Notes under the pieces: generated by a model
The model's database searches: none
Seen by the model: the letters and a program-made list of their open reading frames with translations, nothing else
What the model was told of the DNA's origin: nothing
NCBI GenBank assembly: GCA_018241365.1
Contig: JAFEDX010000212.1
Coordinates: 1 to 54,357, forward strand
Direction: 5' to 3'
DNA from: Pseudomonadota bacterium
GTDB lineage: Bacteria > Pseudomonadota > Gammaproteobacteria > Xanthomonadales > Rhodanobacteraceae
Length of the DNA stretch: 54,357 nucleotides
Made by a program: the position numbers and the translations under genes
In this document: positions 12,318 through 27,726 of the stretch, in pieces
Layout of the letters: each line of letters opens with the position of its first letter
Numbering within the stretch: position 1 is the first letter of the stretch

Positions 12318-12446
12318 GAAACCTCTGAAAAACCGCAGCAAGCTGTCGACTAAACCGGCAGGATTGCCGGTTTGAACGCCGCAGGCGGCCCGCAGGGCGA
12401 ACCACAGGGATGTGGTGAGTAGCGCAGCAGGTTATTCAGAGGTTTC
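12318..12446 (-). repeat. Palindromic intergenic element, copy C
   Basis: This 129-bp element lies between the divergent lptF and pepA genes. Its outer arms GAAACCTCTGAA (12318-12329) and TTCAGAGGTTTC (12435-12446) are perfect reverse complements. Read on the minus strand it starts with arm + TAACCTGCTGCGCT, the same inner end as the elements at 18865 and 27584, and ends with a GCTGCGGTTTTTCAG-like segment. The inside is a chain of small hairpins, for example AAACCGGCA/TGCCGGTTT at 12353-12374. The interior differs from the other two copies, so this is a related but distinct subtype. No coding potential is seen. Confidence 0.75.
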
Positions 12447-17692: not shown

Positions 17693-18346
17693 ATGCGTCG
17701 TTGGCGGGTCGTGGTTGCGGGGCTGCTGATGACGGGCATGGCGTGCGTGGCCGTGGCGCATCCGCTCGACTACCGCATCGACACGGTGCATTCGCAGGTG
17801 TTGTTCAGCGCCGACCACGACGGCTATTCGAATCCGGTCGGGCGGTTCGCCATCGCGCGTGGCTGGCTGCGTTTCGATCCCGACGACTGGGGGGCGTCGA
17901 AAGTCGTGGCCGACATCGACACCGCGTCGGCCGATCTTGGCGACAAGGGCTGGGATGGCTCGGTCACGGGGCACTTGTTCCTGGATGCCGCAAAGTTTCC
18001 GCTGGCGCATTTCGAGAGCACGTCGGTCCGCAAGACCGGCGAACACGCGGGCGTGCTCGAGGGCAACCTGACCCTGCACGGCGTGACCCTGCCGGTGCAA
18101 GTCGACTTCACCGTCAACCGCGTGGGCATGACCCTGTTCGGCTTCGAGACCATCGCCGGATTTTCCGGCCATGCGACGCTGGATCGCACGCAGTTCGGCA
18201 TGACTTCGTTTCCGAAAGCGGTGGGTACCGAGGTGGCCATTCGCCTCGAGGTCGAAGCCACACTCGATCGCGATGCCGAGTACGGTTACCAGCAGGCTGC
18301 GGAAAAGGCCGTGAAGGAGAGGGCGCGTGCCGCTGCGCAGCACTGA
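17693..18346 (+). CDS. YceI-family periplasmic protein, first copy
   Basis: This 217-aa protein has a signal peptide (about 23 residues, ending VAVAHP) and a YceI lipocalin-like beta-barrel, a fold known to bind isoprenoids such as ubiquinone-8. Family features seen are [18 protein letters not shown] near the mature N-terminus, [15 protein letters not shown], and [10 protein letters not shown] near the end. ATG at 17693 is chosen because GGAGG lies five bases upstream; a GTG at 17687 is in frame but overlaps that site. It overlaps the cytochrome b561 gene by 20 bp. The YceI/cytochrome b561 pairing is the same as yceI-yceJ in E. coli. Confidence 0.93.
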
Positions 18347-18875
18347 TTCCGGTTGGGGCGTACTGGTTCGCGCGTTCCATTGGTCGATTGCGATCCTGAT
18401 CCTGGTGCAGGCCACGATTGGCCTGACCATGGTGGGCATGGGCCTGACGCCCGCGAAGGTCCGCGTGTTCGCGCTGCACAAGTCGATCGGCATCACCATC
18501 CTCGCGCTGGTGCTGCTGCGCATCGCGTGGCGGCTGACCGAACGCAGGCCGGCCGATCCCGCCGGCATGCCGCGCTGGCAGGTGCGCGCGGCGCATGCGC
18601 TGCACCTTGTGCTGTACGGGTTGATCCTCGCGATCCCGCTCTCGGGCTGGTGGTTCAACTCGGCGTCGAACGCGCCGCTGGTGTGGTTCGGCTGGTTCGA
18701 CGTGCCCAGTCTGACCGGAGGCTATGATCCGGTGTGGAAACCGCGTGCGCTGCTGCTGCACCAGACCCTGTTCTGGGTGCTGGTGGTCCTGCTGGTGGGG
18801 CACGTGGGCGCGGCCTTGTGGCACCACTTCAGGCAGCGGGATGATGTCCTTAGGCGAATGCTGTGGAAACGCTGA
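18327..18875 (+). CDS. Cytochrome b561 (CybB/YceJ family)
   Basis: This 182-aa inner-membrane dihaem cytochrome has four predicted helices (about residues 13-33, 47-66, 85-105, 146-166). Candidate haem ligands are His in VRAFHWSIA, FALHKSIG, RAAHALHL and LLHQTLF. The family passes electrons between quinol and other acceptors. The start is GTG at 18327 with AAGGAG upstream, overlapping the preceding YceI gene. The last codons (ATG CTG TGG AAA CGC TGA) lie partly inside the repeat element at 18865-19108, which supplies the stop codon, so the C-terminal few residues may be element-derived. Confidence 0.92.
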   Translation: MPLRSTDSGWGVLVRAFHWSIAILILVQATIGLTMVGMGLTPAKVRVFALHKSIGITILALVLLRIAWRLTERRPADPAGMPRWQVRAAHALHLVLYGLILAIPLSGWWFNSASNAPLVWFGWFDVPSLTGGYDPVWKPRALLLHQTLFWVLVVLLVGHVGAALWHHFRQRDDVLRRMLWKR

Positions 18876-19108
18876 ATAACCTGCTGCGCTTGGCAGCTTG
18901 CGCGCCGGCGGTGCTCGCACTACGAAGGCAGGATGCCGAAGTGAACATTCGCGCAGCGAATGGCCCGAGGGCGAGCGCCATGGATGGCGCGAGTTATGCT
19001 CACGTACTGGCGTGTACGCTCCGCTTGCTGCGCTCCGGCGTCACGCAATCACGGAGCTCTTTCGCCATGGATGGCGTTGTTCGCTCGCGACGGTTCTTCA
19101 GCGTTTCC
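18865..19108 (+). repeat. Palindromic intergenic element, copy A
   Basis: This 244-bp element starts with GGAAACGCTGAATAACC (18865-18881) and ends with GGTTCTTCAGCGTTTCC (19092-19108). The two arms pair at 16 of 17 positions. It shares with the element at 27584 a first block (AACCTGCTGCGCT, GGCAGCTTGCG, GCCGGCGGTGCTCGCA), a middle block (ATGCTCACGTACTGGCGTG, TACGCTCCGCTTGCTGCGCT) and the right end (CGCTCGCGACGGTTCT). It has two extra segments rich in hairpins, including CATTCGC-GCA-GCGAATG and GCGCCAT-GG-ATGGCGC. It separates the cytochrome b561 gene from the second YceI gene. No coding sequence is evident. Confidence 0.8.
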
Positions 19109-25791: not shown

Positions 25792-25970
25792 CGGGTGTGC
25801 TACCAATGGCGCCCCGGCCATCCATTCGGTGCGAGAACCGTCCATGGCGGCATCGCCACAGCCCAACCCGGAGCCGCCGCGTCAGCCCACCGACGACGCG
25901 GAAATGCGTGTCTGCGCGCTGCTGGTCGAACGCGGCCGGCTCAAGCAGGAAGATCTTGCGCGCGCCGAGC
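25792..25970 (+). repeat. Parent copy of the duplicated gspE 5' segment
   Basis: This segment is repeated in degraded form at 23071-23248. It covers about 50 bp upstream of the gspE ATG and the first 42 or so codons. Together the two copies bracket the ABC transporter operon as direct repeats about 2.7 kb apart. Confidence 0.85.
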
Positions 25971-27583
25971 GCCTGCTGACGGAAGCGCCTGAAACGCGGC
26001 TGACCGCGCTGCTGGGGCGGCTGGGCCTGGTGTCCGAGCGCGACCTGGCCGAAGCCTGGTCGGAAACGCTGCATGTGCCGCTGTGGTCCGCGAAGGATGC
26101 GCCGGACACCGCGCCCGAAACGGCCTTGAGCGTGCGTTTCATGAAGCAGTACCACGCGCTGCCGGTGGGCGACGCCGGGCCTGCGCTGTTGCTCGCGGTG
26201 GCCGACCCAGGCGATGCCTACATCGCGCACGCGGTGCAGCTTGCGTGCGGCAAACCGGTCATGCTGCGGGTGGCGCTGCGTTCCGAAATCGACGACTTGA
26301 TCGAACGCTGGCATGGCACCGGCCGCAGCGCGCTCGGCAGCATCGTGGAAGGCCTGGAAGGCGAGGGCGGCGCGGAATCGGGTGACGATGACATCGAACA
26401 CCTGCGCGACCTCGCCTCGGAAGCACCGGTGATCCGGTTGGTGAACCTGCTGATCCAGCGCGCGGTCGAGCAGCGCGCCTCGGACATCCACATCGAGCCG
26501 TTCGAGAACCGCCTGAAGGTTCGCTATCGCATCGACGGCGTGCTGCACGAAGTCGAAGCGCCGCCGGCCAGTTCGACCGCCGCAGTGATTTCGCGCGTGA
26601 AGATCATGGCGCGCATGAACATCGCCGAGCGCCGCCTGCCGCAGGACGGCCGCATCATGCTGCGCGTGCAGGGCAAGGAACTGGACCTGCGCGTGTCGTG
26701 CATCCCCACGAGCTTCGGCGAATCGGTGGTGATGCGCATCCTCGACCGCGGCAACGTGGTGCTGGATTTCGATTCGCTGGGATTCGACGAGCACACCCTG
26801 CCGGCGTTCCTGCACGTACTGGAGCAGCCGCACGGAATCCTGCTGGTGACGGGGCCGACCGGTTCGGGCAAGACCACCACGCTGTACACCGCGCTGTCGA
26901 AGATCAATACGCCCGACCGCAAGATCATCACGGTCGAGGACCCGGTCGAATACCAGCTCGAAGGCATCAACCAGATGCAGGTGAAGCCGCAGATCGGGCT
27001 GGATTTCGCCGGGGCCTTGCGCTCGATCGTGCGCCAGGACCCGGACGTGATCATGATCGGCGAAATGCGCGATCTCGAGACCTGCAAGATCGCGATCCAG
27101 TCGGCGCTGACCGGACACCTGGTGCTTTCGACCCTGCACACCAACAGCGCCGCGGGTGGCCTGACCCGCCTGCTGGACATGGGCGTCGAGGATTACCTGC
27201 TGGCTTCGACGGTCAACGCAATCATGGCGCAGCGGCTGGTGCGCAGGCTTGATCCTGCGAGCGCGGAAGCCTACGAGCCGTTGCCGGAGCTGGTTGCCGA
27301 GCTTGGATTGGACAGGCTGACGGCGCGGCGCCCGATCCGGCTGTACCGGCCGCAGCCCTCGGCGGAAAACCCCAGCGGCTATCACGGCCGACTGGCGATC
27401 ATCGAACAGTTGACCATGACCGACGCGCTGCGGCGGCTGCTGATGCAGCATGCCGATGCGGCGGACATCGAACGTGCCGCACGCGGCGCCGGCATGCGCA
27501 CGATGTACGAGGACGGCTTGCGCAAGGCGCTGGCCGGGCTGACCACGATCGAAGAGGTGCTGCGTGTCACTGAGGAGGCCTGA
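25844..27583 (+). CDS. gspE: Type II secretion ATPase GspE
   Basis: GspE is the cytosolic hexameric ATPase that drives pseudopilus assembly. The 579-aa protein has an N-terminal domain (about residues 20-165, MshEN/GSPII_E_N type), then the catalytic core. The core has SDIHIEPFENRLKVRYRIDG, the Asp box LPQDGRIMLR, Walker A GPTGSGKTTTLY and Walker B MIGEMRDLET with the His box LSTLHTNSAAGG. The tetracysteine zinc module normally found after AQRLVR is absent: the stretch reads RRLDPASAEAYEP and later PQPSAENPSGYHGR. ATG 25844 is chosen; GTG 25829 is in frame upstream and no clear Shine-Dalgarno decides. It is the first gene of the T2SS operon; a repeat element abuts its stop. Confidence 0.95.
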   Translation: MAASPQPNPEPPRQPTDDAEMRVCALLVERGRLKQEDLARAERLLTEAPETRLTALLGRLGLVSERDLAEAWSETLHVPLWSAKDAPDTAPETALSVRFMKQYHALPVGDAGPALLLAVADPGDAYIAHAVQLACGKPVMLRVALRSEIDDLIERWHGTGRSALGSIVEGLEGEGGAESGDDDIEHLRDLASEAPVIRLVNLLIQRAVEQRASDIHIEPFENRLKVRYRIDGVLHEVEAPPASSTAAVISRVKIMARMNIAERRLPQDGRIMLRVQGKELDLRVSCIPTSFGESVVMRILDRGNVVLDFDSLGFDEHTLPAFLHVLEQPHGILLVTGPTGSGKTTTLYTALSKINTPDRKIITVEDPVEYQLEGINQMQVKPQIGLDFAGALRSIVRQDPDVIMIGEMRDLETCKIAIQSALTGHLVLSTLHTNSAAGGLTRLLDMGVEDYLLASTVNAIMAQRLVRRLDPASAEAYEPLPELVAELGLDRLTARRPIRLYRPQPSAENPSGYHGRLAIIEQLTMTDALRRLLMQHADAADIERAARGAGMRTMYEDGLRKALAGLTTIEEVLRVTEEA

Positions 27584-27726
27584 CGAATCGTTGGATAACC
27601 TGCTGCGCTCGGCAGCTTGCGTGCCGGCGGTGCTCGCAATGCTCACGTACTGGCGTGTACGCTCCGCTTGCTGCGCTCGGGCGTCCCGCAATCTGCCTTC
27701 GCTCGCGACGGTTCTCCAGCGATTCG
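27584..27726 (+). repeat. Palindromic intergenic element, copy B
   Basis: This 143-bp element begins at the base after the gspE TGA. The left arm CGAATCGTTGGATAACC (27584-27600) pairs with the right arm GGTTCTCCAGCGATTCG (27710-27726) at 15 of 17 positions. The interior is nearly identical to blocks of the element at 18865, but lacks that copy's two hairpin-rich insertions. The outermost 12 bases differ from copies A and C. It fills the gspE-gspF gap, and the next gene starts 28 bp beyond it. Confidence 0.8.

What the first reader, a model, noticed from the sequence alone, without database searches (positions are those of the whole stretch)
18865..19108. A palindromic element family whose outer tips differ between copies but stay complementary
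Three elements (12318-12446, 18865-19108, 27584-27726) share the inner end AACCTGCTGCGCT and a right end like CGACGGTTCT. Their outer 12 nt are GAAACCTCTGAA, GGAAACGCTGAA and CGAATCGTTGGA. In each copy the other end is the reverse complement (12/12, 12/12 and 11/12 pairs). Seen directly: tip sequence varies, tip pairing is kept. Inference: either the arms are selected as a folded RNA/DNA stem, or the element's movement copies one tip to the other. I know of no named family with this rule.
Basis: partly seen in the sequence, partly recalled or inferred. Interest (0 to 1): 0.85.

Follow-up and report, generated by a model that had tools for sequence, protein, structure and literature searches.

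The report
Mobile hairpin with variable, matching tips
Short mobile DNA hairpins scattered between genes of bacteria related to Rhodanobacter keep a fixed core, while their two ends change letters from copy to copy and still pair with each other; this looks like a new, unusually clear variant of known bacterial palindromic repeats rather than a new kind of system.

Summary
The three window copies belong to a palindromic repeat family of a genus related to Rhodanobacter. I extracted 79 distinct full-length copies. The usual copy has a 111-nt core with sharp borders and two arms of about 16 nt. Arm letters vary, yet left and right arms pair within a copy: 832 of 1040 positions in 65 copies, against 486 when right arms are exchanged between copies (0 of 2000 shuffles reach it). 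Pairing is at background by position 18.

Relatives give empty sites; 0 of 28 tested empty-site strings holds a stem of 12, which argues against pre-existing host hairpins. Core stems covary too. A-C mismatches are not rarer than G-U and two-sided changes are mostly transversions, which favours upkeep at the DNA level over selection on a sense RNA. Three of four measured orthologous pairs keep their tips (0-2 changes in 32 nt), while dispersed copies with near-identical cores differ at about half of arm positions.

Best reading: a REP/MITE-like non-autonomous mobile hairpin in which folding, not tip sequence, is preserved, probably through arm-to-arm template copying plus selection. No mobilising enzyme is known. 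Complementary stem changes are already reported for REPs.

The parts
18865..18880 (+). left arm of copy A (GGAAACGCTGAATAAC); contains the stop codon of the upstream cytochrome b561 gene
18881..19092 (+). core of copy A, 212 nt, enlarged by extra modules relative to the 111-nt core
19093..19108 (+). right arm of copy A (GTTCTTCAGCGTTTCC), complement of the left arm apart from one T-C mismatch at position 4
27584..27599 (+). left arm of copy B (CGAATCGTTGGATAAC), directly after the TGA of the T2SSE gene
27600..27710 (+). 111-nt core of copy B, typical family core
27711..27726 (+). right arm of copy B (GTTCTCCAGCGATTCG)
12431..12446 (-). left arm of copy C in element orientation (element on the minus strand)
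12334..12430 (-). 97-nt variant core of copy C (other internal module)
12318..12333 (-). right arm of copy C in element orientation
18327..18875 (+). host gene upstream of copy A, cytochrome b561 (PF01292); its last codons lie in the left arm
25829..27583 (+). host gene upstream of copy B, T2SSE ATPase (PF00437); a T2SSF gene (PF00482) follows from 27755

Best explanation
The three elements are copies of a short non-autonomous mobile palindrome (REP/MITE-like). A copy is one long hairpin: a core, usually 111 nt, whose sequence is kept, closed by a stem of about 16 bp whose letters are largely free as long as they pair. SHOWN: the family, the sharp core/arm border, the fixed arm length, pairing despite variable letters, presence/absence at orthologous sites that show no tip-sized palindrome when empty, tips nearly fixed in three of four measured orthologous pairs and different between dispersed copies with near-identical cores. 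INFERRED: the folded DNA strand (hairpin or cruciform) is what is needed for dispersal, sequence recognition sits in the core plus the AA/TT next to it, and complementarity is restored by copying one arm from the other during replication (template switching), so that changes arrive on both sides. The enzyme that moves it is unknown.
For: 79 distinct full-length copies; pairing 0.56-0.97 per position at 1-16 against 0.24-0.86 between copies, background from 18; 0 of 2000 shuffles. Core positions 1 and 111 at 0.99, adjoining arm positions 0.62 and 0.59. Copy A absent in 12 of 12 aligned relatives; at the copy B site 7 of 14 have only a few nt, 7 of 14 other palindromes. 0 of 28 empty-site strings at 13 sites has a stem of 12 or more, against 62 of 79 joined real arm pairs. 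Core stems covary (38-71 GC 31/CG 34; 42-68 GC 52/CG 16, no broken cell; 68 copies). No G-U excess: arms A-C 46, G-U 28; core A-C 24, G-U 20. Arm pairs departing on both sides from the commonest pair: 193 transversion, 147 transition type. The 27 copy pairs with 1-3% core difference differ at 35-55% of inner and 47-58% of outer arm positions, while L058/L332 has 0 of 32 arm and 5 of 111 core changes. Template switching is reported to homogenise inverted-repeat arms and invert the spacer (abstracts of PMC8604942, PMC8794818); at the copy C site G007 holds a core in the opposite orientation inside similar arms.
Against: No transposase linked; only one family was looked for: Y1 domain PF01797 at E<=0.001 in 7 of 16 genus genomes, none in copy-rich G013, G011, G015, G003. 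No target duplication register. Near-consensus copies still have about 1.8 of 15 pairs broken and mismatches do not grow with core divergence (rho 0.10, p 0.37), so arms are not perfect at birth. Tips are not wholly uncoupled from the core: outer core against arms 1-7 r 0.27 and arms 8-16 r 0.22, as high as outer against inner core, 0.22; so core distance is also a poor clock. Only four orthologous pairs were measured, and one (L060/L093) changed 7 of 16 pairs; shortened copies at the L088 site (G003, G013) also have clearly different tips (by eye). The reversed core at site C could be two independent insertions. Adjacent two-sided changes are only mildly clustered (1.08 against 0.90). The structure was predicted from the same sequences.
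Confidence: 0.5

Rival explanations
1. A structured RNA at the 3' end of genes: the element is transcribed with the upstream gene and the stem is selected as an RNA terminator or mRNA-protecting hairpin; tips drift as compensatory pairs.
For: A coding-like frame ends within 60 nt of the core on the left in 57 of 79 copies, on the right in 23 of 79; stop trinucleotides cluster at the outer arm border (45 hits at offsets 13-16 on the left, 16 on the right). Copy B folds as RNA with z -4.66 on the plus and -4.05 on the minus strand.
Against: A-C mismatches are not rarer than G-U in sense orientation; transversion pair swaps outnumber transitions; no Rfam match at gathering level in the window (best sub-threshold match in the copy A region E 0.01); no T tract seen after the right arm, by eye. 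Stop-codon placement can also come from purifying selection on insertions.
Confidence: 0.2
2. Tip copying from the target: at insertion the host sequence beside the break becomes one arm and its inverted copy becomes the other.
For: L090: the left arm with the stop codon before it matches the empty site of G000 over 13 nt; L001: GGGAACC of the left arm is in the empty G013 site. Left arms extend the native flank better than other copies' arms (self 3.64, cross 1.61, 33 sites; a mean 0.27 of other arms do as well). Unanchored, the reverse complement of the right arm scores 5.90 against 5.24.
Against: Most of the anchored excess is the first 3-5 nt (flank or stop codon), and some of the natives hold other elements or remnants. 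Unanchored, left arm 5.48 against 5.18, right arm 5.19 against 5.10, reverse complement of left 4.86 against 5.00, over 21 sites. L086: G004 and G008 have a native gene end without the arm sequence. No relation of outer tips to own flanks. The two good cases may be deletion scars.
Confidence: 0.15
3. Insertion of the core into the loop of pre-existing host palindromes, so that tips are the arms of the target.
For: Tips differ per locus and the core border is sharp.
Against: 0 of 28 empty-site strings at 13 sites has a stem of 12 or more (strings with more than 70 nt between flanks, some with other palindromes, were left out); arm length is fixed at 16-17.
Confidence: 0.03
4. Deep, old lineages: the core is sequence-constrained and arms only pair-constrained, so slow compensatory drift over long times explains the tips without any link to movement.
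For: Free core positions are also diverse within genomes (within/rest ratio 0.53, 0.81, 0.92, 1.06 for G013, G000, G011, G006; arms 0.76, 1.00, 0.89, 0.98); arm and core distances correlate weakly but above chance in three of four comparisons; mismatched intermediates exist.
Against: Copies with 2-3 core differences carry very different tips. No family trace in any relative aligned at 10 of 14 G013 sites and 10 of 15 G000 sites (by eye), so the insertions look recent.
Confidence: 0.12

Closest known systems
REP / BIME / REPIN elements associated with RAYT (TnpA-REP) tyrosine transposases
   Same: Intergenic palindromes in many copies; stem changes that keep complementarity (passages of PMC2817692 and PMC3733652)
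   Different: No GTAG/CGTC-type conserved foot; the conserved part is the core and the outer stem is variable; 111-nt core; no Y1 transposase match in several copy-rich genomes
Bacterial MITEs (definition recalled)
   Same: Short, non-coding, palindromic, present/absent between relatives
   Different: MITE ends are conserved and usually bounded by a target duplication; here the ends vary and no duplication was found
GGGAATC heptamer inverted repeats of Xanthomonas (passages of PMC4692102)
   Same: Paired arms flanking a spacer, often within 50 bp of stop codons; palindromes with similar G-rich arms sit at the copy B site in several relatives
   Different: Tandem heptamer arms, not the core of this family
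Integron attC sites (recalled, no call)
   Same: Folded single strand, variable stems with kept pairing, AAC/GTT triplets
   Different: Here the triplet is AAG in many copies, arms are 16 bp; no cassette or integrase was examined

Membership tests
REP (RAYT-associated) | conserved GTAG-like tetranucleotide at the foot of the stem | tested here: not met
   positions just outside the arm have consensus frequency about 0.37 on the left, 0.29-0.41 on the right
REP (RAYT-associated) | cognate Y1 tyrosine transposase in the genome | tested here: inconclusive
   PF01797 in 7 of 16 genus genomes incl. own (2 matches), none in copy-rich G013, G011, G015, G003; no link to the element shown
REP (RAYT-associated) | palindrome kept through complementary changes | tested here: met
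MITE | sequence-conserved terminal inverted repeats | tested here: not met
   mean consensus frequency of arms 0.60-0.61, of core ends 0.95-0.96
MITE | target-site duplication | tested here: not met
   no direct-repeat register reaches z 3 (offsets 8-21 on each side, length 2-9)
MITE | presence/absence at orthologous sites | tested here: met
known structured RNA (Rfam 15) | match at gathering score | tested here: not met
   0 matches in the window
integron attC | integron integrase and cassette context | not tested
   considered from memory only

The most novel reading that the evidence does not exclude
Each time a copy reaches a new site its pair of tips is written anew, one arm serving as template for the other, so that the element has obligatory but sequence-free terminal repeats. 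A second, unrelated class of palindromes at the copy B site in related species (G-rich repeated arms of at least four different units among seven species) shows the same pattern, which would make it a general arm-rewriting process in these bacteria.
Probability: 0.22. Interest if true: 0.8.

Novelty: new variant of a known kind. Interest (0 to 1): 0.5.

Why it matters
Terminal repeats of mobile elements are normally the conserved part because an enzyme reads them. A family whose core is conserved and whose ends are largely free in sequence but tied by pairing separates 'sequence is read' from 'fold is needed', and gives dozens of copies in one genus with which template switching, compensatory selection and insertion-linked copying can be told apart.

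Tried and rejected
Pre-existing target palindromes: disfavoured. Target-site duplications: none found. Tips taken from flanks or from the empty site: no general signal, a few suggestive cases; the right-arm half had only 5 sites, two of them spoiled by filled orthologues, and is not used. Solo hairpins of tip type in the window: none recognised by eye among the hairpins listed. Gene conversion of the core: the core ends are not less conserved than its middle (0.96 and 0.95 against 0.915). Core as a molecular clock: weakened. Known RNA family: none. RAYT-type transposase: no clear link; other transposase families were not searched. First extraction scripts were too permissive or too narrow and were replaced (one search then 33). 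Rows dropped: one search kept 79 of 194 profile hits (full-length, 40 nt flanks, distinct); searches use the 68 with exactly 111 nt; one search drops three orthologous members; one search tested only strings with at most 70 nt between flanks and without the core motif. Match lists were cut by the tool, and four orthologous stretches seen were not fetched. Genome labels were entered by hand; three copies are 'other'. Papers: search listings only; abstract of PMC8604942; abstract and start of the introduction of PMC8794818; passages of PMC3733652, PMC2817692, PMC4692102. I saw no paper on this repeat in those listings; the ten shown (of 257) do not contain the word Rhodanobacter.

Full report
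Observation. The copy at 12318 is in the opposite orientation and has a variant core. In the window's own genome the 18-nt left-end pattern (up to 3 mismatches) has 22 places, 0 in the reversed-pattern control; reading them, I take 18 of 22 as members (L012 and L014 with a damaged right end), since L017, L018, L020 and L021 show no partner end. A 123-nt composite query gives 35 matches, which I group into 24 places.

Distribution. In 61 genomes (own plus 60 relatives) 20 have a match: own, 14 of 15 other members of the genus (not G008), and G023, G031, G042, G043, G045, of which G042 and G043 are marginal. An exact scan of genome contigs for one left-core pattern gave 40 stretches; titles name Lysobacterales bacterium 66-474, Rhodanobacter sp., Rudaea sp., a Lysobacteraceae bin and unnamed proteobacterial bins. 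All are marked as metagenome bins. I therefore call it a genus related to Rhodanobacter; that Rhodanobacter and Rudaea belong to Rhodanobacteraceae is recalled, and I ran no taxonomy look-up.

Anatomy. A profile of the core found 194 hits in the loci held, 79 of them distinct and full-length. The usual core is 111 nt with abrupt borders: first and last core positions are 0.99 identical, the neighbouring arm positions 0.62 and 0.59. Arms pair at positions 1-16, weakly at 17 and not at 18. Position 4 is often mismatched. In one subgroup of 23 copies position 10 carries all four letters on both sides and pairs in 0.74 against 0.26 expected, beside an almost invariant C-G pair at 11. Copy B folds as one hairpin (RNA -73.2 kcal/mol, z -4.66; DNA z -3.32; minus-strand RNA z -4.05). 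Core stems covary as well (the structure was predicted from the same 68 copies). Longer copies carry extra modules in the core.

Is the pairing chance or relatedness? Exchanging right arms between copies of the same genome leaves the observed count unreached in 2000 shuffles, so shared ancestry within a genome does not explain it.

DNA or RNA? Selection on a sense RNA should tolerate G-U and not A-C. In arms A-C is 46 and G-U 28, in the core 24 and 20; over all 16 arm positions of 79 copies 80 and 35. Arm pairs that depart on both sides from the commonest pair are 193 of transversion and 147 of transition type. Copies are related, so these counts are not independent, but they point away from a simple sense-RNA stem. 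Read on the minus strand the A-C cells become G-U, so an antisense RNA is not excluded. The strong position effect, stop codons of the upstream gene flush with the left arm, is compatible with an RNA role but also with removal of insertions elsewhere; the ORF count is inflated by spurious frames, and one search is the stricter one.

Mobility and empty sites. Copy A is absent in 12 of 12 aligned relatives. At the copy B site 7 of 14 relatives have a few nucleotides and 7 carry different palindromes. At the copy C site, of 13 relatives G003 and G007 hold an element with similar arms, G007 with the core reversed (scores 55 forward, 21 reverse; G000 13 and 26; G003 11 and 26), G009 and G011 hold other inserted sequence, nine have no element. 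For 14 G013 copies looked up in six genomes, I see a family copy or remnant in a relative at 4 sites (L086, L088, L089, L093); for 20 G000 copies in six genomes, 15 could be aligned and 5 of these have a copy or part of one in a relative (L057, L058, L059, L064, L005). Several sites hold other palindromes. None of 28 short empty-site strings at 13 sites holds a stem of 12 or more (chance expectation from shuffles 0.064 each).

When do tips change? Measured orthologous pairs: L058/L332 no arm change and 5 core changes; L064/L309 two arm and no core changes; L059/L305 two arm changes, core enlarged in G013; L060/L093 eleven arm changes, four pairs changed on both sides, six core changes. Not measured, by eye: the L086 site keeps its left tip in G000 and G013, the copy C site keeps similar tips in three species, the L088 site has different tips in G003 and G013. 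Dispersed copies with 1-3% core difference (27 pairs) differ at 35-55% of inner and 47-58% of outer arm positions. This favours change linked to dispersal, with the reservation that arms still correlate weakly with the core (r up to 0.27), core parts correlate no better with each other (0.22) and free core positions are diverse within genomes.

Where do new tips come from? Not from the flanks, not generally from the target, not from host palindromes. Template switching, reported to homogenise arms and invert spacers (abstracts of PMC8604942, PMC8794818), fits kept pairing, transversion pairs and the reversed core at site C, but does not by itself say why arms vary more than the core. That remains open.

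Verdict. A real, well-supported family of mobile hairpins; a new variant of REP/MITE-like repeats with variable but paired ends. The mechanism is inferred at about 0.5.

Noticed in passing
gspE-gspF intergenic region, orthologues of window 27584: L180, L181, L182, L183, L184, L185, L186: Seven relatives carry other palindromes at this site; each folds back on itself (no shuffle control run). Arms are mostly G-rich repeats: GGGAGCA-type in G009, G010 and G015, GGGGACTG-type in G011, GGGACCA in G014, GGGACTC in G012, mixed in G007, with the opposite arm complementary.
   Followed up: partly
L205, L248, L254, L257, L320, L321 and others: Orthologous intergenic sites hold many different palindrome-like insertions, often starting right after a stop codon (by eye).
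   Followed up: no
L090 (G013) against L191 (G000): The left arm of this copy nearly equals the empty-site sequence, and a similar sequence follows the right arm, as if one arm were target-derived or G000 were a deletion scar.
   Followed up: partly
copy C site, L145 (G001): GAACAGGTTTCGC joins the left flank directly to the outer end of the right-hand arm: native target or scar of a lost element.
   Followed up: no
L064 (G000) and L309 (G014): Orthologous copies with 0 of 111 core differences although the flanks are 94% and 83% identical, which suggests constraint in place.
   Followed up: no
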